Assembly: GCA_017506865.1 (NCBI GenBank)
Contig: JAFCMP010000006.1
Span: forward strand, 434,001-498,000
Direction of reading: 5' to 3'
DNA length: 64,000 nt
Source: Tribonema minus
Taxonomy: Eukaryota; Sar; Xanthophyceae; Tribonematales; Tribonemataceae
The notes under the pieces are model-generated. The model did not search any database, was not told the DNA's origin, and saw only the letters and a list, made by a program, of their open reading frames with translations. The position numbers and the translations under genes are program-made. Positions 1 through 49,929 of the stretch are shown here, piece by piece (positions within the stretch are counted from its first letter, which is position 1; the number at the start of each line of letters is the position of its first letter).

Positions 1-65
1 CAGCCAGCGGCTGCAACTGCCTTCTAACTGCGTGTGTACGCTGCTTGCTGCTCGTTCGACTGCAG

Positions 66-3000
66 TGTGAGGCACTGGCGAGCGACTATGCAGGGCCGAG
101 CAACGGCAACACTCATGGCAGCGGCGCTGGCGCTGCTGTGAACAACGGCAGCGCAAGCCCCGGACCCGGGTCGGTGCGAGAGGCGCTAGCGGCAGTTCAA
201 GACTCTATCTACTACTTGCAGGCAAGTTGAACTTCAACATGAACTTAAGTGCTTGCATTCGAGGCACTAGCGGCAGTCCAAGACTCTATCTACTACTTGC
301 AGGCAAGTTGAACTTCAACATGAACTTGAGTGCTTGTATTCGAGGCCTAGTGGCAGTTCAAGACTCCATCTACTACTTGCAGGCAAGGATTTGAACTTCA
401 ACATGAACATAAGTGCTTGCATTTCACCAGGTTAGAGGCACTAGCGGCAGTTCAAGACTCAATCTATTACTTGCAGGAAAGTTGAAGTTTAACACTTGCG
501 TTCTACCAGATAAGCGAGAGCACTGCTGCGAAGTGGCACTCACGGATGGCGTGTGCGCCGTAGCTGTGTGGCAGCTTGTCTCTTTGAAGTCCTACACAGG
601 GTATATTACGTCTTACACAGGGTATGTTATGTGTGGTTACGCCAAACCAGCGCCCACATAAAGGGTTAGGGTTAAGGTCAGGAAAGCGGTCTGGTTGTTT
701 ACTGATGATGCACTTGCAGGCTCAGTGGGTTGATCCATGTGCGCTGCTAACAGGCGATATGGTGCCCATTCACTTTGGTGACCGCGTCCCCCTGTGCCGA
801 CGTCTGACATCACGTTAGTGCGCGCATCAGACTCATGCACAGTCAACTTGACCGTTGTTGCAAAGTCAAACCCTAAATTCAATCAGGACGGATGCATAGT
901 CAACTTGACCGTTGTTGCGAAGGCAGGCACTTGAGTGGTCCTGCGCGCCTGTGCTGACGTCTGACATGATGTTTGAGCGCGCATCGAACTCGTACGCTAC
1001 CTTGCATAGCCTACAGAGGTCAACTTTTTGTGACGAAGTTCAACTCTAGCTCAATTGGACGGAGCGCTCACGATAGGTACTTGACAAATTTGTGACAGTG
1101 CTCGTCCCACTACGACCATGCACGGGCACCCGTCAGCGCTTTCTGCTCCTGCGGCATAGTCAAGTGCTGCTTGAAGTGCAGCATGAAGACACTTCATGAT
1201 TTCAAGCACTGCTGGTAGCGTGCTTCCATACCGTCCAGGCCTGTATACTAGCCCACGGCCTTGACTGCGCATGCGCATCAGTGCTGTGTCACCGCCGATC
1301 ACACCATTCAAGCCTGTAGTCAGGGCGCCCAAGTTCAAAGGTGACGTGCCATCTTGCGCATAGAATCGTCCGCAGCTCCAGCGCTCAGCACCACCTGACC
1401 CCAGCGCTGCTGTTTTGTTGCGCAGGACGTCATTTGCATCATGCGCCCATGTTCAAAGGTGAAGGTCAGAGGTGATGTGCGATCCTGTGCATGGAACAGT
1501 CCGCAGTGCCACATCTTGACCACGGCGCTGTTTTTTTTTTCCGTTGTGCAGGACGTCTTTGAAGCTGCGGTGGACAGGCTGCAGGTGTGCGAGGGCTTGG
1601 CCAGGCACATCATTGACACGTGAGCCCTGACGTAATTGACCCAATTGCCACCCTATGCTTAACCGCTTCTTGGCGGGGGCACGCAAGCCCTTATGCCAGC
1701 CTAACAAGGCCAACGACACGTGCGCCCCAGATGTAACTGACCCGAACTGCAGCCCTAGCCCTAGCCGTTTTTTGGCCAGACACGCAAGCTCTCACCGGAA
1801 TTGACCTGAACTGCAAGCCTACCCCTAGACGCGATTTGGCCGGGGCACGAAAGCCCTAACGCTAGACCTGGCAAACAACCCCAACTTCTTGCGCGGTCAG
1901 GCATGGACGTGAACCGTAACACCGAGTAGCCCGGACTGCAACTCTGAGTTGAACGAGTTGATCGGCGCGCGCAGCTGACTCTGCTTTCTTCACGTAGTGC
2001 CAGTCGCTGGGTGAACGCGGCAGTTGATCTCAGTACACACACAGGCTGAACGTAGCGGGGCTTACGATTGCGCCATGTACCAGAGTGCCCGATGACGCAG
2101 CTTGTGCAGCAGCGCACGGACGGTTTGGTTGCGAGGGATGAACGATGGCTGGTGCTGATTGGCAGCTGGTTGTAACTGTCTTTTGTGGGCGCCACTTAAA
2201 AAAAAAAAAAAAAAATTGCTTGAATCTCCAGCATGTGTTCACGCTGCGGACAGTCTGTTCAGCGCTGCAGCTGCACTTGTCAACAAATTTCAAGTAACCG
2301 TTTTGATGAGCGCAAAGCGTATCAGCTGCAGCGCACCAACAGCAACCACAGTCTCCGTCATTGGCTGCATTGGAAACGCTGTTGGTATGTCGTCTTGGCT
2401 GGGTCCTCTGCAAGCCTACGCGCTGCTGCTCCAGTGCTGAGCATCACCACACACTCACTGCACACTGCCGCCCTGCGCCAACTGCCCTCATAAACCACCA
2501 GCACTCCACACCGGGCTGCCTTGGCTGTCATGCTGCCTTTCCAGTCGTGCATCAGCGCTGCCCTGCAGTTCTACACCCTGTCATTCCTCGTGTTGTCGCG
2601 TCGAGCATTGCCATCATCACGCTTCAACTGAGCTCTGCCACTGTAACCTTCCCCCCTCCCCCCCTTAGGTTTGTCAAAGCGCTGCTCTTGGATGGCATGC
2701 TTGCCAGCTACACACACACCGCAGCAGCCAGCCCATGTCACAGCCGGCGCAGCGCGCACCAATCCCTGAGCGTTGCCACAGCTACTGCCCCCGTTGCAGC
2801 AGCGCTCAGGCCGCCCAAGCTCAACAAGGACGGTGCGCTACGACATCACTGCGAGGCGTCGCTCGCTGCGCCGGTGTCCAGCGTCACCTCCGTGCTGCCC
2901 CAACAAATGACAGAGTTGAAGTTTGCCCGCAGTACGTCCGCCGCCTGTCCCAGCAGCAGCAGCAGCAGCAGTGCCCTGCCGCTGCATGGCAGCGCCCCCT

Positions 3001-6000
3001 CCCTCAGCAGCAGCAGCGCTCAATTTCCTCCATTGGCTAATGGCGGTGGCGGTCGGCACTGCGGTGCAGCAGCAGCAGCGGCGCTCCCGCCGGCGCTGGC
3101 GGCGGTGCGCGCGTCCGTTGCGCTCTTTGCGCTCGCACAGCTCTTTGACATACTGCGCTACCCCTCGCTGGTGCGTGGGATGGCGGCGACAGTGCTGCTG
3201 CGGCGGCAGGGGCAGGGGGACGGGGAGGGGGAGGGGGAGGGGGGGGGGCAACAGGGAGCGCTGCCGCCGCTGCTACTGTGCCTCTACAGCGACAGCGAGC
3301 AGGTGCGTTGTGCGGGAGCTTTCTGGTGCTGTTCATGTAATTTATTAGATTTCACTGCTGCATGGTCGTTAGCCTTGTGTTCACTCTTGGATGTCCATGT
3401 ACATGTGCTCAGGGGGGGGGGGTTGAACTTTGCTCCATCAGTTTCTTGAAGACTATGCAAGCCTTTCCCACCCAAGAATCCTGTATGCCACCACGGGAGT
3501 TCTGCACTTGAGCGAGTATCGGTTTTTGCCACGCCAGCGGCAGTGAGCTGACTCAGCCCGCGCACAAACGTTGCACCTCTGCGCACGTACCTGCCAAGGT
3601 ATATGTACTGCCGCGTCGGCAACACCAACATGTGTGCTAATGCAGCAGTGATCATTCACGGGCACGCCAGAGCTTTGGCACCATCAACCAGTCATCTACG
3701 TATGCACGCGTTTCCATGCGCTGCATTTGCAGTTGTCGGCTTGCCTCTGAACCGCTCACAGGAGCTCACCCACAACCCTAACTTCAACTTGAGAGCTTGC
3801 CCCACATCCTGCTGTGCAGATCTCTCTGGGCGCATCGCACCTGCTTGCAGCACTCTCGCTGCACCCCCTGATTGTCTCACAGGCTCGGGCCAATAACTTC
3901 AAGTTGCACTTCCCCACCATCTATGCACTGCCCCGCCGCACAGATCTCTCTGGGCGCGTTGCAGGTGCGTGCGGCGGTGTGGCCGACACCCCAAACCTCT
4001 CGTCGACGCTTGCCACAACTTCAAATCCAACTTGAACTTGCCCCGCAACTTTCGCACTGCCCCCCCCCGCACGCAGATCTCTCTGGGCACGTTGCTGGCG
4101 CTTGCAGCGCTCTCACACAACCCCGCGTCCGCGCCTGATAGCGCCACACCGGAGGCGATGCCGCGTGATAACTTCAACTTGAACTTATCCCCACCACCTC
4201 CGCACTGCCTCCCCGCGCGCAGATCTCTCTGGGCGCGCTGCTGGTACTCGCGGCGCCCTCACATAACCTCGTGAACGTCTCAGAGGCGCACACCAATAAC
4301 TTCAACTTGAACTTGCCCCACTGCTTTTTATCTGCACTGCCCCCTCGCAGATCTCTCTGGGCGCGTTGCTGGTACTCGCGGCGCTCTCACATAACCCTGC
4401 CGCCGCGCCCGATGGCGCCACACCGGAGGCGATGCCGTGCGAGCTGCGCGCCGCCGCCGCTGAGCCGCTGCTGCGCTTTCTGGGCCGGCGACCCTCGTCC
4501 GACAGGTTGAGGTTGCGGCTGTGCGGCAAGGCGGTGGCAGCGCTCATGCTACGGCCCCCCTGCCCCGTTGCGCGCGCAGATGAGGCAGTTTCTATGAACG
4601 CTAGCCAGGGTAATCAATCCAATGATTTATCCGTGCAAGTAGGGCGGAAGGACCACCGTGCCTCTGGCGTCAACGGCAATGGCAACGGGCAGGTGTTGTG
4701 GGGCTTGTTCGGGGACAAGACGCCCAAATTCAACCGCAAGACTGCACAGGTCCTTCAACCGTCCGCCGCCAACTCAGAAGATCTGTGGGGGGGGCTCGTA
4801 GGGGGTCACGCAGGGACTCTCAGGGGGGTATTGGACGACTCACTGGGGGCAGCTGCGGCGGCGTTGCGGCTACGCGTGCCGACTGCTGATGGCGGCGGCA
4901 GCGGCAGCGGCGGCGGTGCTGGCGAGTTTCACGCGCAGCGCGGCGCGTTTGTGCTGGCGTTTGAGGCGGAAGCGCGCGAGTGGCTCCGGGGGAGGAGCAC
5001 TGCTGACAGGGCCATCACCAATTTGCCAAAAGTGAGTCTCTCTCGCGGTTGTCGGGATGGTGGGGTGTAGTGCACCTGGTGGTGCTTGAAATGCTGATAG
5101 AGACTTATGGCAGCGGGCCCCGCCTGTATTGCATCGTGCTTTCAAGCATCGTGGTGTAGGTGATGATTGCTTCTATGGGGTGTTTTCAAAATCGCTGGGA
5201 GGGTGGTCTGACTTGCTCTCCTAGTGACCTCATCTTCATCCAGCACTGTACTTCACCATCAGTCCAGCAGAACGAGTTGAACGGATTATCTTGGCTTAGG
5301 GTTGGGGTTAGCGTTAGGGTGAGGTGTATCTTCCGGTTGCGACACGTTATCGCTCGGCGCTTTCCTTGCCACATGCACACGTGCTTCCTGCTGGCACCAC
5401 GTGGTGTAAGAAATTTCGATTATTGACCTGATGCGCCTGGGCGTGCTGGTGCAGATGTCAAGCATGGTGGTGCAGTGGAGCATGGCGGAGGCAGCGGGGA
5501 GCACTGGCGACGGCGGTAGCAGTGCTCAGAAGGATGCGCTAGGCGACAGCACGCACAGCAGCCTCATGGCCGGTGAGTATGCAACATGCATTTACGCCTG
5601 GCGCTTGGAATCTTGGCATGATGCTGATCCGCAGCAGGCCAGGTAGGGTCAGCAGTGAACTGTATTTCGGCTGGATTACCCTAGCACTACCTAGCGTACA
5701 TTGGCGCTGCGTGCTGTCATGCAATGAGACAGGTGACGTAGTCGACACTGAGCATCATAGCCGAACGTGCGCTGTGTGTGCAACAGCCAAGGACTGATGT
5801 TGTAGCGACAAGATTTCCTACGGAATCTGGTACCCCCGCATACCCCAACCCTAATGTTAGCGTTGGGACACAGCGCACGGCCATGTGCAAAACAGCAGGT
5901 TCCCGCGTGCACAAGAAGTGGTATTACACCTCCTACTTACCATAGGCATAAGCTGCTGCTGCCCAGCAGAACGCCGTCACAGCGTGCTCTGGTCGATTGC

Positions 6001-9000
6001 AAGCGAGTGCGCGTGCACTTGTGTTGCGCGCGAACGTCTGCTGACACGCGCCGTTCTGAAGTTGCCCCATGTCATCATCATGTCATCATCAGCCACGGCC
6101 CTCCATAAAACGTTGGCAGCGACACCTCTGCAGGCTTTGAGCACCTGAGAATGGTCACCGCTTGCGGCCATGGACATGACATGCACCCTCTCATGGTTGA
6201 CATTGATGAGTTAATCATTGCTCAAACATCGGTGACTCCACAGTGCTCAAGCACGGCCGCTAACCCCACCCCTAATCCTAACAGTCTTCTGGCCTTTGAC
6301 TCTGCCTGTTCCCCTGTGCCGGCAGCCTCCGCCGCGGACGAATCGCTGCGCGAGAGCATACACTGGCTGCTGGAGGTGCGGCACGCGTACCGGTTGCTGA
6401 GCGGCGCTGCCTCTGCCGCCGCCACTGCTGCTGCTGCTGCTGCTGCTGCTGCGGAGGTCGACGAGGAGTTGGCGACGCTGGCGGGAATGCACGCGTCGGC
6501 GGAACACGAGGTGAGCTGAGCGTCGCTGCACGTGCGCTTGAGGCATCAATCAGCCTGTTGCGTACTCTTGGAATTACTGGTGGTAGCATCGCGTGTGCCC
6601 TAGGCTTAGGGTTTGCTGAGCAGTGACAAGTGGGAGCGTCACCTGCCTTGCCTGCGTCTCCTTGCTGGCCTCCTCCTGTGGGGGCCGAAAGGCCTCGTGT
6701 TCAAACATTACTCTTGTGGGAAAGCCCTACCTTCCACCCCCTACTTGATTACAACACCACTGATTCCAGAGAATTGGCGTTGTGTGACTGGGTGTGGCAG
6801 CGCTCCGAGTGTACATACCTACCTGAACGCGTCGGTGCTTCAGGGAAATCCCCTGAGAGAAGGTGAGGTGTACATGGCACTGCTTGTATGCGCTTTTTGG
6901 CGGAGCACGAGGTGAGCTGAGCGTTGCTGAACGTGGAAGCAGTGTGCTCGAGGCATTGCTCAGGATGGTGAGAGGCACCAGTGTGCATGGAAGTGAATCA
7001 AAAGATTGTAGAGCTCTAGGTGACAAGGAGTGGTTAGCCGCAAGTGCCTTCCCCCAATGACCGTGGTCGCCGCTGCTGCTTTCACTGGCCACGAGTCAAA
7101 CAGTGCCATCATATCCGCAGTTGTAAAAAACTTATGTGTGCAAGCTTTTGTGTGCATCTTTTGTCTTTCTGGCAGCGCTCCAGGTGTGGCCGCTATTTCT
7201 GTCTCTGTGACAGCGTCACTGACATTCGTGGCGACGCTCGGGGCACAAGCGCAGCAGCACAGCAGTGCTCAGGATAGTGCTGTCATAGATAGTGCGCGCC
7301 GCAGAGACACGAAGATAAGGCTTGGGGGCTAGATTAGGGTTAGGGTTAGGGTTGGGTTAGGCTAACCCTAACCCTAAAGGTGCAGAGCGGCGCTCGCAGA
7401 CGCGTGCGCATCAAGTGCTGCAGGCCCCGTGTGTGTCGCCGCAACAGGACGGTTATGTTAGGGTTAGGGTTAGGGTTAGGATTAGGGTAACCTAATAGGG
7501 TTAACCCTAACCCTAACCCTAAGCCGCGACCCACTGAACTCACAGTGCACTGAGGTACTGGAGAAGCAGGGCGCTGCCCTGTCCTCCGCACCGAATAATC
7601 TCTGATTCAAAACAGCTCGTTTAGTGGACATCACATTTCTGGAACAGTTTTCTTCAGTTTTCTTCACCTCAGACATCACCTGACCACCACTCTCAATTAA
7701 CTGCAACACCAACTTCAATATATGTCTGCAGGTGCCCACAGACGGCGTTGTGCTCCTCGAAGGCAGAGACGTCGTGTTCTGCGAAGTTGTCCCCCCTTCC
7801 CCTCTCATCAGGGGGGCAGCCAAGCATCACCACCAGCACGCCTCCGCAAAGCAGCGCGACAAGGCGTCAACTTCAACATCAAGTGTCACCCCCACCCTGG
7901 ATGCATACGTGGTTCTCGATGAGGAAGCTCTGGTCATTGCCGTGCCGGAGCGGAATCGCATGACTCACGGCCAGGTGAGCTCACTAACTGTAGTTGAATG
8001 CGCGCACTCACGCATGTGCTGCTTTACTTCAATCCGTGCCCTGTAGCTGCGACTCACACTGCGCGCCCTGCCTGCACCCAAAAATACGGCGTGTCATCGC
8101 TGTTACAGACAGACTGAACGATGGCGCTGCTGCGATGGATGAACTACCGGAAAGTGTGGAATTACCACATAGCTGTCGAGCTTTGCTCCTTGAACACGGG
8201 CGTTTCCCGCGCCAGATGGGGGCTATCAATTTGTCCCACCGAGCCCAAACTTCAAGTACTCGGTGTAACCCTTGACAATGTGCAACCCGAGTCTGCACAT
8301 TGCCTTGGCTGTGGGGCTGTGTTGGGATTTCTGCAGAAGAACACATCTACCTCTGTACTCCTACTTGGATTACATGCACAAAATGGCTTGCAGAAAACTG
8401 CTTGGAAGTAGCTCACAAGTTCTGTGTATGCGCAAGTCAGGTGAATGTCAACATCAACCTCCTTTGCACAACACTGCCTGCTCTCTGGAAACCTATTCAT
8501 GATTCAGTAACAAATTTCTGCAATAACTGCAGAAGACCACTGCGTTTCGCCTGTCGTGCTGCGCAGGCAACATCTGACCCTACGTCTCATGATCACTGCC
8601 TACTCTCCTCTCACTTGTGACCTTGCAGGTCAAGGCGTGGGTGCCACTGCACCACGTTCGCACCGAGTCACAGGAGGTGCTGATGCTAGAGGCTGCTTAC
8701 GGCTCAGCTGATGCGGCCGACGCGACATCGCACGACAGGAGCCCCGACAGCAGCAGCGTTGCCTCTCAAGACGGGCAGGCCATTACTGCAGCAGGTGGAA
8801 TTTGATATTGCCTGTGATGATCACGCAGGCTTTGCTTCGCACTCCCACAGTGCATGGCCAATGCAGCAAGTAGCATGCGCGCTCTGCCTTGTACCTGTAC
8901 TTCAAATAAGTATCTCTGACAGCTGCTCGCTGCTTTAGCGCCCCAATGCTGCTCTGCATTGTAATTGACAGCTGTTAAATACCGTCCCGATGCTGGCACT

Positions 9001-9930: not shown

Positions 9931-11394
9931 TGGCACTTTGGCAGCGTGTGGTCTTGTCCGTGACTGTCTGTGTAGCCGGCGGCCTCTGCAAAGGCTGCTT
10001 GGTGCAGAGCCTAGTTTGCTTGTACGTCCTTCACCAGACATGCAGCGCTCGCTCTGCACAGCGTGCGCCCAGAAACAGCGCTAGTTTGCCTGTATGTGAC
10101 AACACCCTGTACTTACCTACCCTGTAAGCATTTGTGTACATGTTTGATGCTGTGTATGCAACAGTGGCTGTGCGGCGCGCCAAGGCGCATTTTGATACAA
10201 ATCACGCACGCACGTCAATACACAACGGCGGGTCTCATCACGAGCTGATTTCAATAGTCTTTGCTGTTTGTGTTTTGTCCACCATGAGTGTGAATGGCAC
10301 ATGACTGCGATCGTCACTCGGACACACAGTGTTTGCTGTTGTTGTATTGTTCGCCATGACTGTTGATGGCACGTGATTGCGATGGTCATTCAGACTCGGC
10401 ATGCCTTTGTCGTATAATCACATGAGGAGCATTGCGTGTGTGATGATAGCACGGTGCAAGCACAGCAGATTGGTCCTCATTAAGGCTGCATTTTGTGTTG
10501 TTAGCCATGACCGTTGATGGCGTGATTGCAATGGCCACATAGACACTGCATGCCTTTTTCGTCCGCAGGTCCGGCGCAGCTGCTCAATGGCAACGTTTGA
10601 ACTCAGGATGCCTGATGACCATCGCCAGGTGTGCGAAAGATGCAATGGAGATGATGGACGTGGTCGTCAAAGCCTGGGTATAGAAAGGCTCTAATTTACG
10701 TGTCCCAAAAAGTATATCAATTTAGTATTTTCAAAGGCAGAGGGTGAATGCAATAGGCTGTTGCAAGGGGGCTGATTGACAATCAGCATCCCATGATCAT
10801 GTGACCAGTCGAAAATCATGCGTGCTCTACAGGCCAAATATTTGCGTCCATGTGCCATCAGACTGCAGTGCATGCCTTGTCTGTTGAAAGCTAAGCATAC
10901 ACTGGCATCATAAGCATACCAGCTCTCCGCAGTCTCCAACACATGCAGCCAAACGCGCGCTGCGAGGACATACTTTGAAGAATTGTCATGCTTTAGGGGC
11001 ACTGTGTTGCTGACAAGTGCCTAACAACAGCACCGCGCACAAACCCTGAACAACATGTGAACATGTTTGTGTGATGATACGCATGTTGACAATGCACTAT
11101 GGCAGTGAAAGCGGTTGAAAACATCACCTTGCTGCTGATGTAATTACAATGCCAGCCCGAGAAGTTTGAGTGGCGATGTGCGTTGAACATCTGTGCAGTG
11201 AACACGCCATGTCACAGCAACCAGGTAGCAATTGTCATGGCGCACAGCCAGAAACCCCCTGTCTGAAGTATCAATATTGCGAGAACTCAGAACTCACATC
11301 GTGCGGCGACAACAGGGGACATGAACCACGAATGTGTGCACATTGCATATGCTTTGACAAAACGCTATCCGAATACTACTTTGATTGATTACAA
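9931..11394. other. Intergenic stretch between CLEC16A and the minus-strand gene
   Basis: I recognise no gene. The stretch 10250-10560 holds three diverged copies of a unit of roughly 70-110 bases (GCCATGACTGTTGATGGC and variants, GTGATTGCGATGGTCA, CGGCATGCCTTT). The last copy ends in an acceptor-like TCCGCAG at 10568, followed by a 55-base open stretch (MATFELRMPDDHRQ) and a GT. That could be an orphan exon. The rest shows nothing. Confidence 0.5.
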
Positions 11395-12457: not shown

Positions 12458-12929
12458 TGTCAGTGAGTGCAAAGCAGTAGCGCTTGTCGCGATTATGTAA
12501 CAGATACGGTGTAGTGAGATTCCAATCTGACCTGATCTGGAGAGGGAGACCGGCGTCGTCGCCGTCTGGATGTAAAGTCGCTCATGGAACTGACAGATGG
12601 CAGTTGCCCTCAACGTTGAGGACTCAATGTGCTGACCACCTCTGTGTATGGAAGCCTCCAGAATGATCGCAAGAGCGTGTGCTGGCTTTATCAACAGATG
12701 CAGCAGTAGCGAGGGTGGGTCCTGATGTCTCCACCTCTTGTTTAGCTCAACGTTGAAGTTGATGTGAAGTTGGAGGAGAGTTTTGAAGTTGGTGGTTGCG
12801 AGGAAGAGAGGCAAAATCACAGCGTACCAGCTTTCTTTTGTGTGGTCAACAGCATTGCAACGCATATTCCATAGGCTCCATAGCACTGCACAGCTGCAGC
12901 TACCTGTAGCTACTTAAAACATTTGAAGG
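12458..12929. promoter_or_regulatory. Candidate bidirectional promoter
   Basis: This 472-base gap separates two divergent start codons. It contains an AACGTTGAAGTTGATGTGAAGTTGG motif region near 12750 but no clear TATA box. The call rests on gene geometry only. Confidence 0.4.
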
Positions 12930-16949: not shown

Positions 16950-23569
<6,620 letters not shown>

Positions 23570-24729: not shown

Positions 24730-27700
24730 ATGGCGAAGGATACTGAAGACCTTTGCTCTCTGACGGACTGCAGCGGCGAGGCTGTCTTCGACAGACTCTG
24801 CAACCGGTACTTGAGGCACAAACCTTACACATCTGTGGGCGGCACCCTGCTCGTCGCATTCAATCCCTACGAGTGGCTGGACATTTACCGCAATGGTAAG
24901 CGCTGGATGCATATTGTCCGATGCTTCGCTGTTTAGCAGATCAGCTGCACGGTGCACGCTTCGTAGTTGCAGCCAGTGCACTGGCTCTATTGAACATTCA
25001 GCAGAAGCATGCGTTAGTCACCGACACTGTTTGTGTTAACTGTGTGTTCGCTGATGTTGCAGAATTGGATTACATGCGAGGGAAGGCCATGCCGGCGCAC
25101 GTGTACAAGATCAGCGCCAAGGCGTATCTGAATCTGGCGACGAGCGGGGGCAAAGATCAGTGCATCCTTGTCAACGGCGTTGCTGGATCTGGCAAGACCG
25201 AAACTGCCAAGCTTGTACGGGTGCGTTGTGATTGACAGACGCGAATTTGCAGGCAACGCTGCTGCACGTGGACGCAAGAACTTGAACATGGTCTCAAAGG
25301 GCCAGTAGCACTGGCAATAGCACACCAGCTCCAGCAATGTTGAACATCTGGTATGCATACTCAACAATTCAAGCAGCTGTGCTGTACATCGCGACCAACA
25401 GGCTGATGTTACAGCGCCAACGGGTCGCTGTTCGGTCACTATCGGTCAATGAGTTGGTTGCTTGCAGGCAAAGTTACAGCCCTATTTTGGCATTGCTTGC
25501 GGCCTCGTACAGCTGCTCATGTTTCAATGCACAATGCCAGGTTGATGGAGTCCGATGTGATATTGTCATATCATGCTCCAGTCAAATCAAATCAAGGAAT
25601 CGCACTGCGGGTGCTAGCATGCACGCTGCCCGCCGTACTGTGTGTCGAAATGGTAGCTTCTGTACGGCAAATCTCGTGGCCATCGATATCCATATGAGTG
25701 GTACCCACCCAATTTGCTGCAACAGCTTCAAGGTAGCAATGCGGACACCTAGTTAACTCTGTGCCAGAGCTCCACGAAGGAAGAAAAAGCATGTCACATT
25801 GACGGCAGCTCCACCTGCACCACCATCACCGGCAAGGCTGACGCCGCAACCTCCACGGACACTGCTGCATTGCGCGTTGTCCTTTGCAAGCGGGCCACGA
25901 TTCTGCCCGCGGTCCAGGCATTATGCGCCAGCTACAAGCGTTTCGCTCAGGCATTTAGCCATCTCAAGTCCACTAATGACGCCACCGGTTCACACCGCAC
26001 CCAGTGCCCGCCGCGCAGCAACTGCACGCAGTCCACCGCTGTACACCGCTGTACACCACTGTACCCTCCTCAGTGTTCCCCCTTCTGGCCTGTCAGTCAT
26101 AAATCGCACCCCCCCCTCTCCCCCCGCAGCGCCACCTCACCACCCTCGCCGCAGAAGCCAATGCAGCAGCGCTCAGCAACAGCGCCGCCGCAGCCACGCG
26201 CCGCGAGCTCCTCGAGGCGAGCACGCTCCTCCTGGAGGCCTTCTGCAACGCGGCGACGACGTCCAACGCCAACAGCAGCCGCGCCGGGGTCACCACGGAA
26301 CTGCTGTTCGAGGGGGGGCGCGCGCCGCGCCTCGTGGGGTCGCGCATACGTACCTACCTGCTGGAGGAGACGCGCGTCGCGGCGCATTCCGAGGGCGAGG
26401 GAACGTTCCACATACTGCACCTGCTGGCGGACGCCGCGTGCGCCGGGGGGGGGCTGGAGGGGGGGCAGGGGCAGGGGGAGGGGGAGGGGGAGGGGGGGGT
26501 GGGGCTGAGGTTGGGGGGGCTGCAGATGGGGGAGCTCGTGCCGGGGCAGCTGCCGTACGTGGGGACGCCGTGGCTGGCGGCTGAGAATAGGTATGTAAGT
26601 ATGTATGGTGTTGTATGTAATGGTGTCGCATGGTTTGAATGCACGCATTCTGTGGCGTCACGTGGCAGCGGTGAACAAACCATGAGGTATATGTGATGGG
26701 ACACTGTAAAGCAGTCCTGGAGGTACAGTGGGTATGCCCGGGCCATTGAGGCTGTCGCTGCTCCTTTCATAGGTTGTCCAGTGGCGCTATGTACAGTCCA
26801 ATAAACTGCACTTGCTTGTCATGTGCCAATGCCAGTATTCATCACACAATCCTCGGTGAACAGCCGGACATGGGTACGTTGCTTCCTGAGAGGTGAGCAA
26901 TGCTCAACCTGCTGTGCCGCACGTGATGGCAGGTATGTGACCACTAATGGCGATGCGTTCTAGCGCAAAAACCAGCAGTTCTCGGTGCACCGCAAGCCAG
27001 ACCTTGTCCTTCCAAAGAAGCGGCGATTGCACCAATCAGGCACTCTCACGCTGGCAGGTGCACCAAGGCGGCAGAAGCAGTGCTCAGCTGAAGGTGCAGC
27101 ATCATCAGACCCCTCACACTCACTCTGCACACCCCCTTCTCCCATTCTCATGCTGGCAGGTGCACAAAGGCGGCAGACGCGCTGACAGCAGTGCTCAGCT
27201 GAATATGCCAGACGCCGACCACCACTGTACCACCGCTCGCAGTCACTCAGCACACTCCCTTCTCTCGCACTGGCTCTTGCACCAAGGCGGAGGACGCGCT
27301 GGCAGCAGTGCTCAGCTGAACGTGCACCATCGCCAGACCCCTCACACGCACTCTGCAACACCTCCTTTTTTCGCGCTGGCAGATGCACCAAGGCATCAGA
27401 CGCGCTGGCAGCAGTGCTCAGCGCGCTGGAGGCCATAGGGCTCGCCGACGCGCAGACGGACGACCTGCTGCGAGCGCTGGCGGGGCTGCTGCACCTGGGG
27501 AGAATCAACTTCAACAGCCCGGACGAGGGCGCCGCGCACCACATGGTGTCCCCCGATGGCTGCAGCATTGCGCCCAACAGCAAGGTTTGTCTGGCAGTGA
27601 ATTCTTCCTCAGTGGTTGCTTGCTTGCTGTAGCATAGCGCCGGACAACAAGGTTCGATCAGCATTGATTCATTCCTGGCATACTCATAGGTGCCCCCCGA

Positions 27701-30700
27701 TGGCTGCAGCGTAGTGCTGGAGAGCAAGGTGAGACCGGCAGTGATTTCTTTCCGTTGCAGCACAGCGCCAGACAGCACGGTTCGGTCAGCAGTGATTGCC
27801 TTCTCGTACATTCTTTCTGAAGGCAAAATGAGCAGTGTGTGCAGGCTCTGTATGTGGGAGAGTCCCTTTCATGACGCCTATGAGGAAAGCTGCCGCTGTT
27901 GCATGATAGTTGTGTCTGCTAGCTGCAACATACTGCCCGACAGAAGGCAGCAGGCATCTAGCACTGTGCTGACTGCACTGCGGGCAGGCAACATTGCCAC
28001 CCGCCTGTTGATTGGTGCTATCAGCAAGTCTGGCTCTCAGCAAGTACTGGCCGGCACTGCCTCAAGAGTTGGAGTCATTCGCACCTGGCATCGGTGTGGC
28101 CATAGCCGTCCATCTGCTGCGGCTGCGTGCAGCAGTGCTCACATGCGGCGTTGCATCCACCCCCTGACACCCCCCCCACACACACACCTGCGAAACAAGC
28201 GACTTCACCACCTCTCAAGGCACTCCATCACACCCTTACCTCACACGCGCGTGCCACCAACCTCGCCCCTACAGGAAACTGTCACAATCGCCGCGGAGCT
28301 ACTGGGTCTGGACCCGCTGCTGCTGTCGGCAGCGCTCACGCGTCGTCGCATCAAGGTGCGCGGCGAGAGTGTGGAGGTGCCATACGCGCCTGTGGAGGCG
28401 GCTGCTGCGCGCGACGCGCTGGCGCGCCTCATCTACGCCACAGCGCTCAGCAGCGTGGTGAGTCTCCCTTGCACTTGCTTACTTGAGAAGTTGAGTTCTT
28501 CAAGTTGAAGATGGTACGAGGTCTGAGCAGAAGTTGATGCTGATGTGGAGGTGCGCAATGCGCTCGCGGGAGGCAGCGGTCGCACGCGACGCGCCGGCGC
28601 GACTCATCTACGCCACAGTGCTCAGCACACGTACATTGCGAAAAGTCCACTCATGTAATTGCACTGCGACAGGTGGCACATGCCACTGCGCACCGGCTCA
28701 GCCACCGACTTACTTGCATATATACACATAGTTTGACAGGTTGAATCATTCGCTCATGTACTTGAACTGCGACAGTTGGCGCACATCAACACGGCGACAT
28801 CCGCCAAGGATTAAGTTGCATTCAATCACATTAAGGTTCACCAGCACTTACTCGCATTGCAACAGGCTGACTCACTCACTCTCTCATGTACTTGACCTGC
28901 GACAGGTGGCGCACATCAACGCGGCAACGTCCGCCAAGGGGCGGCGGCGTGCGGGGTCACGTCGCACCATCTCTGTTGTGGACATGTTTGGGTTTGAGAG
29001 CACCGCTCACAACGAGTTTGAGCAGGTACGAATTACAATGACTGTACAGTTCCATGCCATTGTTGCAGGCCATGACGTGTGTTGTCCGTGTATTCGTACT
29101 CGTGTCAAGGCACCATTGAGTTAGGGTTAGCATTGGGGTTCGGGTAAGCATATGCTTCTCATTGAATCCTGCACTGTTAACGTGTGTCTTGCCGCTACAT
29201 AGCTTGACCATGCAAGGCATGAGCATGTGCGTTGCATGCTGAATGCGCAGCTCAGTGTGTCTGTACTGCTCTCGCCTACCACCACGCACCCCAAGCGCAC
29301 ATCCGACGCCATAGAGTATGGTTGCGTCTGACGTGCTTGACTTCAACTTGAACTGCGCCCTGCAGCTGCTGATCAACTTTGCCAGCGAGAAGCTACAGCA
29401 GAGGTACCTGGATGACGTCTTCAGGGTGCGAGGGGTCAAGTGCAAGGAGGAGGGCATCTGCTACGAGCAGGTGAACGCCAACTGCAACTATTGTTGCAAT
29501 TTAACAAGTATGCATATTTTGTGTTGAGCGATGTCTTCTGATCTTGTTACATCGGTATTCAAGTATTTGAACTACTTGAACTACTACACATTGTCACATC
29601 CTGAAAGTACACAGTACGTTGGGGAGCAGATATAAAATGCCCTGGTTTGGGCTGCAGCTTAAAGCACTTGTTGAATCATTGCCTTACATCGCTGCACAGT
29701 CGTGCCTGCACAGGTATTGGTTGTCTGCAGCAGTGCGCGCGTGACGATCAACCGCCCAGTATGCCATGTAATCTGTAAGCAAACCAGATCACGGCGCCAT
29801 CAGATGTCACAGCATGCAGCACTTCAACCAAAGCCCTTCTCTGTAGCGTTGGGACGACTTGGTGGCAGTGCACAAATCCACTCTGCTAGTTTTTTGCTGA
29901 TCTCATGTCCTGGTGGCAGTGCACCTTGCTTCTGGCCAATGTGGCGACAACGCCCAAGTGCTGATTGCCCCCCGCCAACACATGTACCGTGCTGCTTGAC
30001 AGCCCATGCGCTGCCTGGACCACCACTACTGATCCACTGATCCCACACACCACAACTGCACATTATCCGGAATGCACAAACCTTCCCGCACTGATACCGA
30101 TACCCGCGCATACACGGGACCCCACCCCCTCAGGTCAAGATCCGCGACAACAGCGCGCTCCTCGCCGTCCTGACCGGCACCCTCGGGGTCCTCCCGCTCC
30201 TCGACCAGACCTCCCGCCTCAAGCGCGGCGACGGCGCGGGCTTCGTGTCAGCGCTGCGCTGCCAGCTCGAGCCCTACCACCCCAAGCTCGTGTGCACGGA
30301 CATGGCGCGCCTGACGGGGCGCGTCAGCGCTCAGGAGTTTGTGGTGCGCCACAGCGCTCAGCGCGTGGCGTACGACGCGCGCGCGTTCGTCGCGCGCAAC
30401 CGCAACCAGGGGCGGCGCACGGTGTCGGCGGCGCTGCGCGCGAGCACGAACGCCGTCGTCGCCGCCGCCGAGAAGCTGCAGAAGGTGATGGAGTTGATGG
30501 TGGTTTTTTTTTTGTGTGTGTCTGAAGGCGGCGCAGTATAAGTGAGATTAGCCAGGGGCAGCGCACGGTGTCGGCGGCGCTGCGCGCAAGCACGAACGCC
30601 GTCGTCGCCACCGCCGAGAAGCTGCAGAAGGTGATGGAGTTGATGTTGGATGGTTGGTTTTGGAGGTGGCGCGGCCATCGCTGCTCCGAATGCAAGCGCT

Positions 30701-33700
30701 ACGATAGTATGCATGTCAGACTGATCTCCACCACCATACCTACGTACATCATATTTTGTGAGCATTATGACGGCGGCAGTTGTCCCTGCGGCAGCGCTCA
30801 TCATATGTGCCTGAAACCGCAATGAGCATCAACAGCTGGCGCAGCTCAATTGCATGTTAACGCGACATTGTACAGCATTGCCAGAGCCAATGGTGCTGCG
30901 ATGGTCGTTGGACACTCGTTGAAACCAGCAAAACAAAACTTCAAAGTACATTTCGTTCGTTTTGCCAGGCACCAGCAACGCTCATCACCCTATCCCTCAC
31001 GCAATTGTGACGTCATCGACGACAACGCAGGAGTCCCTGCGAGTCTACGAAGCCGAGCTTGCGGCACAGGAGGAAGGCTCCACCAGCAGGCGCAACTGCT
31101 CTGACGCCGCATTCCACGATGCTCAGAACCAGCGATAGCCACATGCTGGTTGCTGCTGCCGCAAACCGGCAAAACCAGATGCGCATCCTCCCCCCCCTGA
31201 CATCATCGCCCCGTAATTGATCATTGACAACGCAGGAGTCCCTGCGGGTCTACGAAGCCGAGCTTGCGGCGCAGGAGGAAGGCTCCTCCAGCAGACGCAA
31301 TTCTTTTGACGCAGCATCCCACGCATCCGGCAAGACGGCAAAGACGGGAACCAGCTGGGGGGGCGGAGGCGGCAAGGACCCCAAGCACCCCACGGTGGCG
31401 GGTCGGTTCGGCTGCGAGCTGAACGCGCTGTGCCAGCGCATCGCGGATGCTCAGACGCAGTACGTGTGGTGCATACGGCCCAACCGGGCGTGCGCGCCGT
31501 TTGAGCTGGACGCGACGTACGTCGCCAAGCAGCTCAGGTGCGCGCCACTTCAACTTCAAACCCTACTTCAACCCTGATTGCGCGCCGAGCGCGGCATTCA
31601 GTCGGTCTCAGCTGTCGTTCCTCGGCACGGATTCTGCTGCTTCACGAGTCATTTGTGAACCTTGATTAAAGAGCTGTTGGGAACTGCTGCGGTGCAACAG
31701 CATCGCAGATTGCGCACCCGATGCGTGAACTGCGAGCATCCGTGTACAGGGCCAGTAAATACTTTGTCTTGTGCAGCCAGCATGCACTCTATTTCGGGAT
31801 CAAGCAAAATTTGTATATGACTCTTGCCACCGGGGACGGCCTGGCGCAGTAGCTTTAAAATTGTTCAAGGGCAATGTGTACGCTGACGTGCCAATGACAC
31901 ATCTGCTCCAATCAGGCCGCTATTGCAAGCCTGACTCGCTAATGCAAGCCTGACTCAGCACGTGCCTCCGCTGTCATCTGCACGGCAATGGCGCCGTGCG
32001 AAAATCATGATATCATGTGTTCTCCCTGATCTGTGCTGTTGTGTACTGCAGGTGTGCCAATATTGTGCAGGCGGCCAAGGTGCACCAGAGCGCAGGGGTG
32101 AGTGCACTGCTGCGTGCTTGTGTATTAATTTCATGCCTGTAGGCACGTATAGATTAGTGGAGTTATTATTACATAAAGACCTGTGGATATGATGACACTG
32201 TTTGACTCGTGGCCAATGACTGCAACAGCGGCGACCACGGTTATTGGTGGAAGGCACTTGCGGTTAACCATCCTTTGTCACCTAGAGCTCTACGATCTTT
32301 TGATTCGTTTCCATAAATATGAAGCCCAAAATTCACTTCAAAAAACTAATGGTATGTACATTAATGAAATATCTGCAAGCATAACGTACTGTAGGTAATC
32401 GACCCATCCGGCAATAGAGCTCCAATGTCACGAGTCGTGCCACGTCACGTAAACAGCAATGCGCGCCGTAAATGTGAGTTGTAAGGATGACTGCATCGCC
32501 GCAACTAATGCCGCCAAATACTGCAGCTCCACCACAAGCAGACAATCGGCAACAGACAATCTTCAGGTTTTATAAATGTTGACAAGGACATCGAGAGTCA
32601 TGACTAGTCCAAAGTGCTGACGCAAGTACTGCTGCTTTTTTGAGTTTTTTCCCGGCTCACAGAAATTAACAGAGTGGATGTACAATGTTCAGTCTTCAAT
32701 TTTGCAAAAGGAAACACCTGTAGGTATGCATTTTTCTCCCTAAGAAACCTACTGTATTAATGAAATGCGTTGAATAAAGAAATTGAACGCATGCACTCAT
32801 CCCTAAGAAATTAAAATTATCAGACAACATAAGTTGCGGCAATTGTCACAACGTTGATTTTAGGAAGAAAATGCCTTTGAAACTACTGTATTGAGATTGA
32901 GTGTGTTTCTCAATTCCCAGCATGGCGTCGGTATTCCTATAAAATTTTAAAAAGATATGATACGCCATAACATTTGAAAAAAGCAAGTGTGTTGTGCATT
33001 ACAAGACGTATTTCATAAATATTCACTTGTCATATTTTTGATTTTTAAATATAGTTCTGTGTACTACCTCGGACAGCGTTCCTAGATTTGGCCCTGTCAC
33101 TGTCTGACAGCACTCTTTCAAAACCTTGAGCAGTGTTGTACGGCAGTGGCAAGGGACCAACGTCCATTTAAATGTCGCCAGCACACACACTACCCCAAAC
33201 TTCAACCCCATGCCAACTTCAAATATGATGCCAGCGCTCAACAGCCATCGTGACAACCCCCTGCGCCCCCCCTCCCCCCCTCCCCCCCCCGTGCAAACCA
33301 GGAGTACATGTCCTTTGCGGACTTCTTCAAGGCCTTCAAGTGCATCACGCCTGCAGCAGTGCTCTTCAGGGGCGAGAGCCTCGCCTCAAGTTCAAGTGGC
33401 GATGGCGATACTTCAAGTGACAACTCCGTCGCCGTGGGCGCGGGCTATGACGGAGCGCTGCTGCGCGGCATGTGCCTGGCCATGCTTGAACATCTACTTG
33501 AAGTTGACCCGGCTGATCTGGCACCCAGGACCAGTGTGCAGCGACGAGGTCAGTACCTCAATCCCTGGTTGAAGTAGTAAAAGTAACAGTTCAAATGATG
33601 ATATCATGGCACCTGCATTTCAAAAGGTGCTGAGGAAGGCGCAAGCGTACTTCAGTTGCCTGAGGTGTACTTCGCATAACAAGCCACAATCAAGCACTGC

Positions 33701-36700
33701 TTCACGGCACCTGCCTGCCGATGTTTGCGCACCTACTGCCTGTAAATCAAAACTGCTCTTAAACTAATATACAGTAGTGTGCCTTACCAACAGGTGAAGC
33801 AGGGTACTATTTCACGGTGTGTGTCATAGGTTACAGCAGGGTGAGTGTGTATAGGCATTGGCAACGCCAGGCACTATGCGTCAATCTTTGATGTACTCAT
33901 GCCACAATTGAGTTTGAGCTATTAAATATTTGTGGCATCTTGTTGGAGCTGCTGCCTATACAGTAGTTCCTGTTCTGTCGTGCCTGTGAAGCTGTTGCAT
34001 GTCAGTCGAGAATTTTGAAGCACCGTGATGTTGTTACATTTCAGTCAAGAACATACTTCTATTGATCCAAACACACCGTTGCAGCTCAGCAGCAATCACA
34101 TGCTCCAATACTCCTCTGCAGCATACACGGATGCACTGTGGCAAATGCTATGCCTCACGCAGCACCAGACCACACACACGTCATTGCCACTCTCCGTATT
34201 TATGTACCACACCACCCTTCCTTCAGCCTACATGCTGTGTTGCGCGTGCTTTGTTAACCCCATGATCACGGACCAGCAGCAATGCTCTGACTGCTTCATG
34301 TCTCTCCGTTCCTACCGTCCATTTCTATCGGCCGTGCCTGTATTGCAGTGGCTGCGCTCATGGCCCGGGGCGACCTTGGCACGCCTGGAGTGCGCTATAA
34401 TAGCAATGTTCTCATAGCTTCACCGCGTCGTCTGTTCCCACTGTCTATTCTATCGGCTGTACCTGTACCACAGTGGCTGCGCTCATGGCTTGAGGCGACC
34501 TTGGCACGCCTGTCATGCGTTATAATCGCAATGTTCTCACAGCTGCACCGTGTCGTCTGTTCCCACCGTCCACTTCAATTGCCTTTACCTGTATTGCAGT
34601 GGCTGCGCTCATGGCTCGAGGTGACCTTGGCACACCTGGAGTGCGCTATAAGGTTGGACGCAGGGGCTTCTTTCTGCAGAGCAAGGATGCTGAGGTGAGG
34701 TGTTCACCCTAACTCTTGCCTTGGTCTTTGGTATGCTGTTGCAACGGCAGTCAGGCAGCATGTTGTCTGAGCATTGCCATTCTACCTCCTGTATTGATGG
34801 AACAAAGACTGGCCTCATGGTGAACGCCAATTACTATTTGAAAAACAGTGTCTCATGAGAGACAGTTGACCAGTGCAGCGCCCCATCATTGCTTTGTCAC
34901 CTCACGCGTTAGTGCATCGAATAGGTAGGTACCTCTATCTCATTTGATGTCAGCAGTCACCATAGACTCCCTTAACACAGTGTTCTGTCTCAGTTCATTG
35001 TGTTCATGTTTCGTTGCTACGGATGCAACTGAAGGGTGCCGTGAAATACGCAGGGTAGTCAGTTCATTGTGTTCATGTTTCATTGCTACGGATACAACTG
35101 AAGGGTGCCGTGAAATATGCAGGGTAGTGCTTCCACTGTTTTAGTACACGGAAGTGTAACTGCAATTTTGTTGACCTTGCAAAGGGCACAGACATGGCTG
35201 CAAATGCACACATACATAAGTACCATCATTGAAGGAGTGTCTTCTCAAGACCAGATTGCATGATGTCGCGACGCACGGCTTCATTCGCAGCGACGCAAAT
35301 GGTGTTGTTTCAAACAGGCCTGCAGTTAGACCCCCTTCCCAACTAACCCTGCACTTGCTTGTTGCGAATGTGACATACAGTTCCTGAGGTTGCAGCTGCT
35401 GCGCAAGAAGCACTTTGAGTTACAGGCCGTCTCTTCGCTGCTGCTGGCGTCGTCGCCGCGCCGTTCCGACCGCCGCTCAAGCTCGGCAAGCAGATCCCAA
35501 GCATCAGGTGAGCGAGTTGCAGACCCCTGCCTGACTTGAACTTTGTTTTTACAAGCGTTGTACAGCGGAATGCGCAGCACAAACTGCAGTCAGTTAGCAC
35601 TATATCCTCTCCGCGCCAAGCACTGATGTTGACGCGCTAGCCGTGTCATGGCTGCTGCTGACATTGTCGCTGTGCCCCTCGAACTGCTGCTTTAGAAAGT
35701 AAACTATAGTTATTCTTTGAAACAACACATACCAGAAGTCTGCTATGGACTGTGATGACCCAGCTAGTTTATTCTGCAGCGCATCGCCGCAAGCAGCCCA
35801 TGTTTAAACGTGGCGCTGAACAGGCATCAGACTGTCTTTGACGAGCCAGCCTGCTCTTCAATTGTGTTGGTGTGACAGAAGAGGGCACAGTCTCTGTAGC
35901 GGACAAGGGCGCGACAAGGGATAGGAAGCGCCTCATATCCGCAGGCGCCCTCAGGCGGGCAGGGCGCAGCACCAGCCGCAGCCGCTCAACCGCTGCGAAG
36001 GTGAGCTGATCGTGCAGTTGAAGTTGAAGCTGCTGGTTGGCGCTTGGATTTTGAAATGCTGCTCTCAGTGCTGCCGCTGGTGCAAAGAAAGTGCACACTG
36101 CCTGTCCTACACCGTGCAGTGGGTATGAGCTGTGATGCATTGTGTGTGGCATCTGTGCAGCACCGCTCCGTGCTGAGGGACGCGAACAACAAGCATGCGC
36201 AACTTGTCCTTTTGACATCAAGGGTAGGTCGGAATGTGAATGTGACGGCACCCTAACCCTAACCCTAAGCTGAGCAATCAGTCAGGCCAATACAGATCCT
36301 TCAGGGACCTGGCATTGGACAGTCGTTAACCCACATGTTAAACTCGCGACGTTTTATCGGCAGTACTGTACTTGTTCGCATTGCAAAAACAGGCACTGCT
36401 TGCTCCCACTGCAGGCAAACGTCAGAAGCCGGGGCGTCATGTGCTGCCTGCATCATCGTAATTGCCGCATAAAAACACCACTGTACTCACAGGCCGGTTC
36501 CTGGTACTTGTGATGCTGGGCGCAAATTGCTGTAGCAGGGTTCATCAGGTGCGGGCACTGAAGCTGACAGCAGTGCTCAGGACAAGGTCACAGACACTGC
36601 GGCAGGTAAGCAGACGCTGAGTCGTCAACATTTTGTGCTGCTGAAGTACCCGCTGAGGCCATGAAGCTGCCTTAACAAACCTACCTTGTGTTTGTCCTAC

Positions 36701-46190: not shown

Positions 46191-46199
46191 GCATATTGC

Positions 46200-46520: not shown

Positions 46521-46549
46521 GCGCCAAATTTGGCGCCATCAGTACGTTG

Positions 46550-47190: not shown

Positions 47191-47199
47191 CTGGTGTCA

Positions 47200-49690: not shown

Positions 49691-49929
49691 GTGCGCAGGT
49701 ACGTCAACATGAGGTTGAGAGCAATCGCATGACATACACACACGCAACAATATTTAGCCAGCGCCATGCAAGCACACACACAAGTATTGGTGGTGACCAG
49801 CAGACATGCAACAAAGAGAGAAACATGTAGAAGTATGCAAGCGCAAAGGCACACCTGAAACACTCGACTTGTCTCAATCAAGTTGCTTGGGAGCACCACA
49901 AGCCACAGCCCTGTCCTGGCACTAGCAAT

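What the first reader, a model, noticed from the sequence alone, without database searches (positions are those of the whole stretch)
1..36000. Introns grow by tandem duplication of exon-intron junctions in at least four unrelated genes
At about 15 splice junctions in CLEC16A, PPAN, AK2 and myosin, a unit of about 45-150 bases that spans the junction (exon edge, splice site, some intron) is repeated 2-5 times inside the neighbouring intron. The copy at the true exon stays in frame; the others decay. Both donor sides (183-500, 1595-1870, 18640-19395, 30555) and acceptor sides (3815-4410, 20575-21010, 27035-27440, 34340-34650) are affected. Units are bounded near splice sites rather than at random, which suggests a mechanism tied to splice-site sequence, transcription or RNA-mediated repair. 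I know of introner elements, but those do not copy the host exon edge.
Basis: seen in the sequence. Interest (0 to 1): 0.9.

Follow-up and report, generated by a model that had tools for sequence, protein, structure and literature searches.

The report
Intron ends grown by junction-spanning duplications
In the genome of this photosynthetic organism, short stretches spanning the border between an exon and an intron have been copied repeatedly into the neighbouring intron, more often than chance predicts, so some introns seem to have lengthened from their ends.

Summary
In the window, 14 blast-detected repeat arrays lie at splice junctions, and a more diverged fifteenth is confirmed by alignment; the adenylate kinase and myosin genes among them are Pfam-verified. 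The pattern recurs elsewhere. In 314 kb (window plus 25 other 10-kb pieces), 48 of 75 local direct repeat arrays straddle a predicted exon edge (5 exon-internal and 14 coding arrays set aside), against about 25% expected under uniform placement with simulated decay. The excess survives a local null (47 of 71 against 17.8), a same-intron null with twofold detection bias (39 of 53 against 28.1, P about 1e-4) and masking of confident exons (17 of 41 against 13%). Copies are direct (48 against 0 inverted at junctions), mostly locus-specific, and decay like unconstrained DNA. Spacers between copies are often unrelated, so not all are head-to-tail. Short-period tandem repeats and the youngest arrays show no clear excess. 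Best reading: repair-type local duplication, tolerated where it spans a splice site, and either formed or kept more often at exon edges. A splicing- or RNA-tied mechanism is not shown. Limits: my own HMM gene models, no RNA data, 0.2% of the genome.

The parts
180..494 (+). Donor-side array, 81-nt unit, 3.7 copies; predicted junction 221/222 (donor GCAAGT)
   Evidence: TRF; self-blast; three intronic copies differ from the exon part by 6 synonymous and 1 nonsynonymous change in all
1595..1880 (+). Diverged three-copy donor-side array next to the exon ending near 1618
   Evidence: pairwise z 10.4-13.2 against 500 shuffles
3816..4437 (+). Acceptor-side array, smallest period 124 nt, predicted acceptor at 4351
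6498..6935 (+). Weak pair (37 nt, 92%) spanning donor 6511
   Evidence: weakest member of the set
14906..15152 (+). Acceptor-side pair, predicted acceptor 15112; spacer 14969-15089 found once in the genome search
18301..18538 (+). Acceptor-side pair at adenylate kinase exon 18528-18674
   Evidence: exon matches PF00406 E 2e-18
18631..19131 (+). Donor-side array, four copies, period 144; donor 18675 (GC-AG intron)
20555..21004 (+). Acceptor-side array, three or four copies; acceptor 21000 (adenylate kinase exon 21000-21118)
   Evidence: exon matches PF00406 E 3e-12. Counted as interior by the mechanical test because my HMM missed this exon
22942..23366 (+). Array of 85-101 nt units in the last adenylate kinase intron, ending 17 nt before the acceptor at 23384; abuts but does not straddle
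27041..27422 (+). Acceptor-side array, period 102-117; acceptor 27383 (myosin)
   Evidence: PF00063 E 1e-4, below the family cut-off
27545..27797 (+). Donor-side pair, period 144; donor 27585 (myosin)
28370..28627 (+). Donor-side copy holding exon sequence up to just before donor 28458
   Evidence: class E
28746..28939 (+). Acceptor-side pair, predicted acceptor 28906 (within the myosin gene; this exon alone has no Pfam match)
30406..30649 (+). Donor-side pair, 96% identity, 48-nt gap between copies; donor 30485
   Evidence: counted as coding (X) by the mechanical test because the HMM also called the intronic copy an exon
31021..31323 (+). Acceptor-side pair, 90%; acceptor 31236; spacer 31119-31225 found once in the genome search and unlike the flanks
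34278..34651 (+). Acceptor-side array, period 124, 2.7 copies; acceptor 34600 read by eye from the myosin frame (no Pfam match for this 31-aa stretch)
   Evidence: counted as interior by the mechanical test because the HMM missed the exon
34990..35128 (+). Interior intron tandem pair, 69 nt, 96%; ordinary head-to-tail duplication, not at a predicted junction
40040..40155 (+). Interior tandem pair, 57 nt, 98%; not at a predicted junction

Best explanation
Local, same-orientation duplication of pieces of about 40-200 nt is frequent in the genes of this photosynthetic eukaryote. The likely source is error-prone repair of staggered breaks (both ends filled in and joined, sometimes with filler between), followed by further copies through slippage or unequal exchange. 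When a duplicated piece straddles a splice junction the gene survives, because splicing can go on using the outermost site that keeps the frame: the first donor or the last acceptor. The extra copies then lie inside the intron, decay neutrally, and the intron has grown from its end. Shown here: the arrays, their excess at predicted splice junctions on both donor and acceptor sides, direct orientation, mostly locus-specific sequence, and neutral-like decay. Inferred: the repair mechanism, which site is spliced, and the cause of the excess (a break hotspot at exon edges, or better survival of such copies).
For: Junction excess: 48 of 75 arrays against 24.7% expected after simulated decay, P 7e-13. 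Same-intron null with duplicated length removed 39 of 53 against 22.5, or 28.1 if junction copies are twice as detectable, P 1.4e-4. Confident exons masked: 17 of 41 against 13.1%, P 6.5e-6 (15 further arrays that are only intronic copies of junction arrays set aside). Coverage by one source piece per array is 11% at the junction, 2.0% at 60-100 nt into the exon, 2.6% at 60-100 nt into the intron, 0.7-1.8% deeper. Orientation: 48 direct against 0 inverted at junctions; 94 direct arrays against 4 inverted within 1 kb. Decay: 108 synonymous against 99 nonsynonymous differences, exonic part 10.6% and intronic part 14.2% diverged, as expected if only the true exon is constrained. Introns with a junction array are longer, median 734 against 494.5 nt, 39 of 189 introns. 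Spacers unlike the flanks in several pairs fit filler.
Against: The class at 92% identity or more shows no junction excess (2 of 7 against 1.4; Fisher P 0.04 against the rest, 0.11 if 30406 is added), so formation at junctions is not directly shown. Counting any copy with exons masked, coverage is not higher next to junctions (4.5% at 0-5 nt against 5.7-9.9% beyond 100 nt), though that measure credits the intronic copies of junction arrays to the interior. Exon edges come from an ab initio HMM without RNA data. A simple uniform fill-in process does not by itself predict the excess. Microhomology at breakpoints was not measured. The simulations assume uniform ages and exon constraint of 0.25.
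Confidence: 0.6

Rival explanations
1. Duplications are uniform. The excess is only ascertainment: the exonic copy is conserved, so straddling arrays stay detectable longer, and introns are short relative to the unit.
For: Exon constraint does raise detection (simulated crossing fraction rises from 19.4% placed to 24.7% detected). The youngest class shows no excess. The same-intron expectation is already 42% (22.5 of 53). Any-copy coverage with exons masked is not raised next to junctions.
Against: The excess remains with confident exons masked (17 of 41 against 13%) and with a twofold bias in the same-intron test (P 1.4e-4). Non-straddling arrays near junctions are not in excess: 13 arrays lie 11-100 nt away against about 12.8 expected.
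Confidence: 0.17
2. A mechanism tied to splicing or transcription (spliceosome-bound pre-mRNA as repair template, R-loops, or nucleosome edges at exons) makes or copies junction-spanning pieces. This overlaps with the hotspot branch of the best explanation.
For: The source-piece coverage peak lies at the junction, similar on both sides and at both donors and acceptors. Units of 120-160 nt straddle in 24 of 28 arrays against 7.7 expected, near nucleosome size. Gene ends without splice sites have 1 of 34 against 47 of 431 (Fisher P 0.24, not significant).
Against: No edge motif seen on inspection. No clear excess of short-period repeats. The youngest arrays show no excess. No RNA, chromatin or break data.
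Confidence: 0.13
3. Ancestral introns were very short, so any 130-nt duplication outside exons had to include a junction; the excess is a relic of recent intron growth.
For: Older arrays straddle more often than the youngest. Introns with junction arrays are longer. Removing the array length brings 8 of the 39 introns with a straddling array below 70 nt (one search list).
Against: For the rest the change is modest (median of the 39 from 690 to 507 nt), and the excess persists against that shortened length. Detected arrays make up only 8.6% (classes C and E) plus 2.9% (interior) of intron bases.
Confidence: 0.1
4. Introns were born by tandem duplication of a coding segment carrying AG|GT (Rogers model), so donor and acceptor units are the same repeat.
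For: Two introns fit in register: L019:7782-7897 (length 116 = period 116) and, less clearly, L033:884-1019 (length 136 = period 136). The L022 intron 4382-5064 may be a further case by eye. At any register, 34 of 235 introns have unusually similar donor and acceptor flanks.
Against: In register, donor and acceptor flanks of 235 introns are barely more alike than shuffled pairs (14.73 against 14.48 matches; 6 at 20 or more against 3.0 expected, 1 at 22 or more against 0.4). Most of the 25 top-scoring cases printed are out of register, many of them array copies called exons or introns too short for the two compared windows to be independent.
Confidence: 0.05
5. The intronic copies are functional alternative exons or splice sites under selection.
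For: Splice dinucleotides are kept in 27 of 29 donor and 31 of 39 acceptor copies.
Against: A synonymous share of 52%, against 26% for random changes, is about what neutral copies compared with a constrained exon should give when transitions predominate (my estimate, not simulated); frameshifting gaps (15) and stops (2) occur.
Confidence: 0.05

Closest known systems
[quoted passage not shown] Hellsten 2011; potato RdRp case PMC4974935, passages read)
   Same: Local tandem duplication in a gene with splice signals inside the duplicated unit; the potato case copied an intron-exon structure
   Different: Here existing introns lengthen; donor and acceptor flanks are not generally the same repeat; 46 of 431 sampled junctions lie in a duplicated piece instead of single cases
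Insertions in rice attributed to patch-mediated break repair (Vaughn and Bennetzen 2014, known only through review PMC7407515, passages read)
   Same: Tandem, partly tandem or non-tandem duplications of DNA within about 200 bp of a break
   Different: No splice-junction preference is described in the passages read; copies here also build arrays of several units
Repair-mediated duplications of proximal DNA in vertebrates (PMC2671141, abstract and passages read)
   Same: Short local duplications that can include intron splice sites
   Different: That study excluded pairs within 50 bp of each other and describes an inverted case; here 0 of 48 junction arrays are inverted
Introners (PMC9860276, passages read)
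   Same: Change intron content in protist genomes
   Different: Introners are repeated families across genes; these units are mostly locus-specific and include the host exon edge
Intronic minisatellites (recalled)
   Same: Tandem arrays with units of tens to hundreds of bases
   Different: Few copies, straddle exon edges, mostly old and diverged

Membership tests
Intron gain by tandem duplication (Rogers model) | Intron start resembles the next exon's start and the previous exon's end resembles the intron end, in register | tested here: not met
   235 introns: 14.73 matches against 14.48 in shuffled pairs; one clear in-register case (L019) plus one borderline (L033). Not met as a general rule
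Introners | Near-identical sequence in introns of many unrelated genes | tested here: not met
   One array and two spacers found once in the genome search, which scores only best candidates; non-coding parts of 40 of 48 straddling arrays match no other sampled locus, 8 match by pieces of 24-125 nt
Patch/fill-in repair duplications (features partly recalled) | Copies in direct orientation | tested here: met
   94 direct arrays against 4 inverted within 1 kb; 48 against 0 at junctions
Patch/fill-in repair duplications (features partly recalled) | Source within about 200 bp of the copy, with or without filler | tested here: met
   Smallest period of the 48 straddling arrays: 44 at or below 200 nt; spacers unlike the flanks in several pairs
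Patch/fill-in repair duplications (features partly recalled) | Little or no microhomology at the joints | not tested
   Edges listed but too decayed for a count
Minisatellite | Head-to-tail copies of one unit | tested here: inconclusive
   Contiguous in some arrays (81-nt unit at 180-494), displaced with a spacer unlike the flanks in others
Minisatellite | Copy number varies between individuals | not testable with these tools
   One assembly only
Alternative tandem exons | Copies keep an open, constrained reading frame | tested here: not met
   Differences fit neutral decay of the intronic copy; 15 frameshifting gaps, 2 stops over 652 codon comparisons, several of them against the same exon

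The most novel reading that the evidence does not exclude
A DNA-copying or break process focused on exon-intron borders (for example at the edges of exon-positioned nucleosomes, or coupled to splicing) repeatedly duplicates about 100-nt pieces centred on splice junctions, so that introns in this lineage grow from their two ends and keep decaying fossils of their own exon edges; about one sampled junction in nine carries such a record.
Probability: 0.27. Interest if true: 0.85.

Novelty: new variant of a known kind. Interest (0 to 1): 0.6.

Why it matters
Why introns are the length they are is an open question often answered with transposons. Here a measurable, datable part of intron sequence (8.6% of intron bases in the sample) is written as diverged copies of the intron's own exon borders. 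That gives a built-in clock for intron lengthening and many natural tests of how the spliceosome chooses among duplicated sites. If the junction excess reflects formation and not survival, it would point to a link between gene structure and DNA breakage that I did not find described in the papers I could search.

Tried and rejected
Rogers-type intron birth as the general cause: rejected. Introner or transposon origin: not supported. Assembly artefact: rejected by the divergence of the copies (best pairs of the 48 straddling arrays 67-98% identical). Conserved functional copies: not supported. The AACTTCAACTTGAACTT word as the signature of a mobile element: 87 exact copies genome-wide, but the reversed control word gives 55, so it behaves like a low-complexity intron word. 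Telomere-like TTAGGG tracts as the filler of these duplications: not associated (7 of 57 tracts lie in arrays, arrays hold 11% of non-coding DNA). Deletion protection near exon borders as the sole cause: it predicts an excess of near but non-straddling arrays, which is absent. The exon part being shorter than expected at first looked like a signal, but is also what pieces of about 90-100 nt would give. Two protein searches returned nothing at E 0.001, so the species and orthologues stay unidentified.

Papers: PMC4974935, PMC3488318, PMC7407515, PMC9860276, PMC7617258 (passages only); PMC2671141 (abstract, section list, passages); all others only as search listings. Rogers 1989, Hellsten 2011, Gao and Lynch 2009 and Vaughn and Bennetzen 2014 are known through those passages only. 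Searches listed no title or abstract start reporting genome-wide junction-straddling arrays; several lists were capped (for example 20 of 74, 8 of 1,784) and the library lacks most subscription journals.
Full report
WHAT WAS CHECKED. The window is G000:C6:434001-498000 of a 158.2-Mb assembly of 554 contigs. The genome has 92 matches to the chlorophyll a/b-binding family, so the organism is a photosynthetic eukaryote, probably an alga; I could not name it. Adenylate kinase and myosin exons match Pfam and follow each other in profile order across affected junctions, though three of the four myosin exons are below the family cut-off taken singly.

GENE MODELS. No annotation exists here, so I trained a hidden Markov gene finder on the sequence itself: 331 exons, 279 introns, 431 confident splice junctions (216 donors, 215 acceptors) in 314 kb. 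It recovers most of the adenylate kinase and myosin exons that I looked at and missed at least two (21000-21118 and 34600-34694); arrays at those two junctions were therefore scored as interior, against my reading. Pfam on 20 exons, 19 with a straddling array and one (L022:5065-5184) beside one at either end: 9 had no match; 11 had one at E 0.05 or better (adenylate kinase, myosin twice, EF-hand, CBS, Ku, PDZ, PPR, PA, and two that look spurious), but only 3 (adenylate kinase, CBS, PDZ) passed Pfam's own cut-off. In one search, 4 of 10 further stretches matched, 2 above the cut-off. Many exons thus rest on the HMM alone.

COUNTS. Sample: window plus 25 pieces of 10 kb (20 on contigs taken from the hit list at round positions, 5 picked from random places). 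One search finds 94 local direct arrays: 48 straddling an exon edge with another copy in non-coding DNA (26 acceptors, 21 donors, 1 gene end), 27 wholly non-coding, 5 with an exon-internal copy and a non-coding copy, 14 coding. By hand, at least two of the 27 (20693-21004, 34278-34651) and one of the 14 coding ones (30406-30649) are junction arrays too; I did not move them in the tests.

IS IT MORE THAN CHANCE? Three biases matter: introns are short relative to the unit, the exonic copy is conserved and stays detectable longer, and arrays cluster in some genes. Uniform placement with simulated decay (ages uniform to 70% divergence, exon constraint 0.25) gives 19.4% straddling when placed and 24.7% when detected; observed 48 of 75, P 7e-13. 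With placement within 5 kb of each array and duplicated length partly removed: 47 of 71 observed (one gene-end array and three arrays with spacing over 450 nt dropped), 17.8 expected, sd 3.5, maximum of 200,000 draws 34. In the same intron, using its length before duplication: 39 of 53 (18 arrays could not be assigned to an intron between confident exons; 8 of those straddle) against 22.5, or 28.1 if junction arrays are twice as detectable, P 1.4e-4. I argue that twofold is the largest bias that independent loss of copies can give, because an interior pair can lose either copy and a junction pair only one. With confident exons masked, so that exon conservation cannot help, 17 of 41 arrays touch a junction against 13.1% expected (P 6.5e-6; 8.4% expected if pieces are 60-120 nt), not counting 15 arrays that are only the intronic copies of junction arrays. 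A position-by-position profile of one source piece per array (for straddling arrays the shortest copy holding the junction, which narrows the peak) is highest at the junction: 11% of bases within 10 nt, 2.0% at 60-100 nt into the exon, 2.6% at 60-100 nt into the intron, 0.7% at 100-250 nt, 1.3-1.8% deeper. With any copy counted and exons masked the profile is not raised at the junction (4.5% at 0-5 nt, 5.7-9.9% beyond 100 nt); that measure counts the intronic copies of junction arrays in the interior and so cannot be compared directly, but it shows how much depends on counting sources and not copies. Restricting to strong exons does not weaken the rate (32 of 230 junctions at log-odds 20 or more, 17 of 162 at 30 or more, 47 of 431 over all).

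ANATOMY. Straddling arrays have smallest periods of 57-401 nt, median 133.5 (from the list); 24 of 28 arrays with units of 120-160 nt straddle. The exon part is 11-92 nt in the 38 clean cases. Copies are direct: only 4 inverted pairs lie within 1 kb and none straddles a junction. Units are mostly specific to their locus: the 183-500 array and two spacers were found once in the genome search, which scores only best candidates, and 40 of 48 arrays have no match in another sampled locus. Of 8 junction arrays at 88% identity or more whose copies lie 20-300 nt apart, 7 have a spacer with similarity to the flanks below z 3 (5 below z 2), so a purely head-to-tail process does not describe them. Edges show no shared motif on inspection.

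DECAY. Against the true exon, the exon-like parts of intronic copies differ by 108 synonymous and 99 nonsynonymous changes in 652 codon comparisons (several copies share an exon), with 15 frameshifting gaps and 2 stops; exonic divergence is 10.6%, intronic 14.2%. If only the true exon is constrained, roughly equal numbers and a lower exonic divergence are expected; I take this as neutral decay, an estimate that I did not simulate. Of 69 aligned copies, those covering the splice dinucleotide keep it in 27 of 29 donor and 31 of 39 acceptor cases, near or slightly above the neutral expectation. Introns with a junction array are longer (39 of 189; median 734 against 494.5 nt), and junction-linked arrays make up 8.6% of intron bases, interior arrays 2.9%.

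WHAT SPEAKS AGAINST A SPLICE-TIED MECHANISM. Short-period tandem repeats (7-50 nt) show no clear excess: 3 of 109 against 1.8. The class at 92% identity or more has 2 straddling of 7 against 1.4 expected, lower than older classes (Fisher P 0.04; 0.11 if 30406 is added). Gene ends, exon edges without splicing, have 1 of 34 against 47 of 431 (P 0.24), which is too few to decide. The excess may therefore arise by better survival of copies that include an exon edge, or by formation; the data do not separate these.

KNOWN RELATIVES. Tandem duplication is a recognised route to new introns, and in potato a duplicated intron-exon structure made one (PMC4974935, passages). Here the in-register donor/acceptor homology that this model predicts is absent as a rule, with one clear and one borderline exception; at any register 34 of 235 introns have unusually similar flanks, and most of the 25 printed are out of register, many of them array copies called exons. 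Rice insertions attributed to patch-mediated break repair include tandem, partly tandem and near non-tandem duplications within 200 bp (PMC7407515, passages, citing Vaughn and Bennetzen 2014), and vertebrate repair-mediated duplications can copy splice sites (PMC2671141, abstract). Mechanistically this is where I would place the arrays; the concentration on splice junctions in one genome is the new element. Searches listed no such report, in capped lists from a library that lacks most subscription journals.

LIMITS. 0.2% of one genome; ab initio exons; no RNA, no relatives, no population data; most of the extra pieces come from contigs in a motif hit list; ages assumed uniform in the simulations. 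Confidences of the rivals overlap, because the hotspot branch of the best explanation and the splicing-tied rival are not exclusive.

Noticed in passing
introns of the 314-kb sample; for example a cluster in window 7334-7525: Telomere-like TTAGGG/CCCTAA words are the most over-represented 8-mers of predicted introns (e.g. TAGGGTTA 55 seen, 0.6 expected); 55 of 57 tracts of 9 nt or more lie in introns, in both orientations. Not linked to the duplication arrays.
   Followed up: partly
introns throughout: Words of the type GTTGAAGT / AACTTCAA are about 10-20 times over-represented in introns; AACTTCAACTTGAACTT has 87 exact copies genome-wide (reversed control 55).
   Followed up: partly
window 18675 and others: GC donors are common: 26 of 279 predicted introns, including the adenylate kinase intron (GCAAGT).
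   Followed up: no
L022:4382-5064: Intron of a possible Ku-type gene (PF02735 match below cut-off) whose donor-side and acceptor-side units look alike by eye; possible intron born from a duplicated coding segment.
   Followed up: partly
L019:7782-7897 and L033:884-1019: Introns whose length equals the repeat period and whose two ends match in register, as expected for intron birth by tandem duplication, unless one flanking exon is a mis-called copy.
   Followed up: partly
window 57737-58507 and 61635-62117: Long tandem repeats of a 105-nt unit inside predicted coding sequence, related to each other; probably alanine-rich, not translated.
   Followed up: no
window 44500-47250 and 49870-52690: Cluster of direct and inverted repeats of 0.2-2 kb, transposon-like.
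   Followed up: no
window 58637-59449 / 63197-64000 and 54077-54293 / 62124-62340: Inverted repeat pairs at 97% (813 nt) and 100% (217 nt) identity, recent or conversion-maintained.
   Followed up: no
L030 about 2620-2940: Inverted-repeat element of about 300 nt within a predicted intron, MITE-like by eye, beside junction arrays.
   Followed up: no
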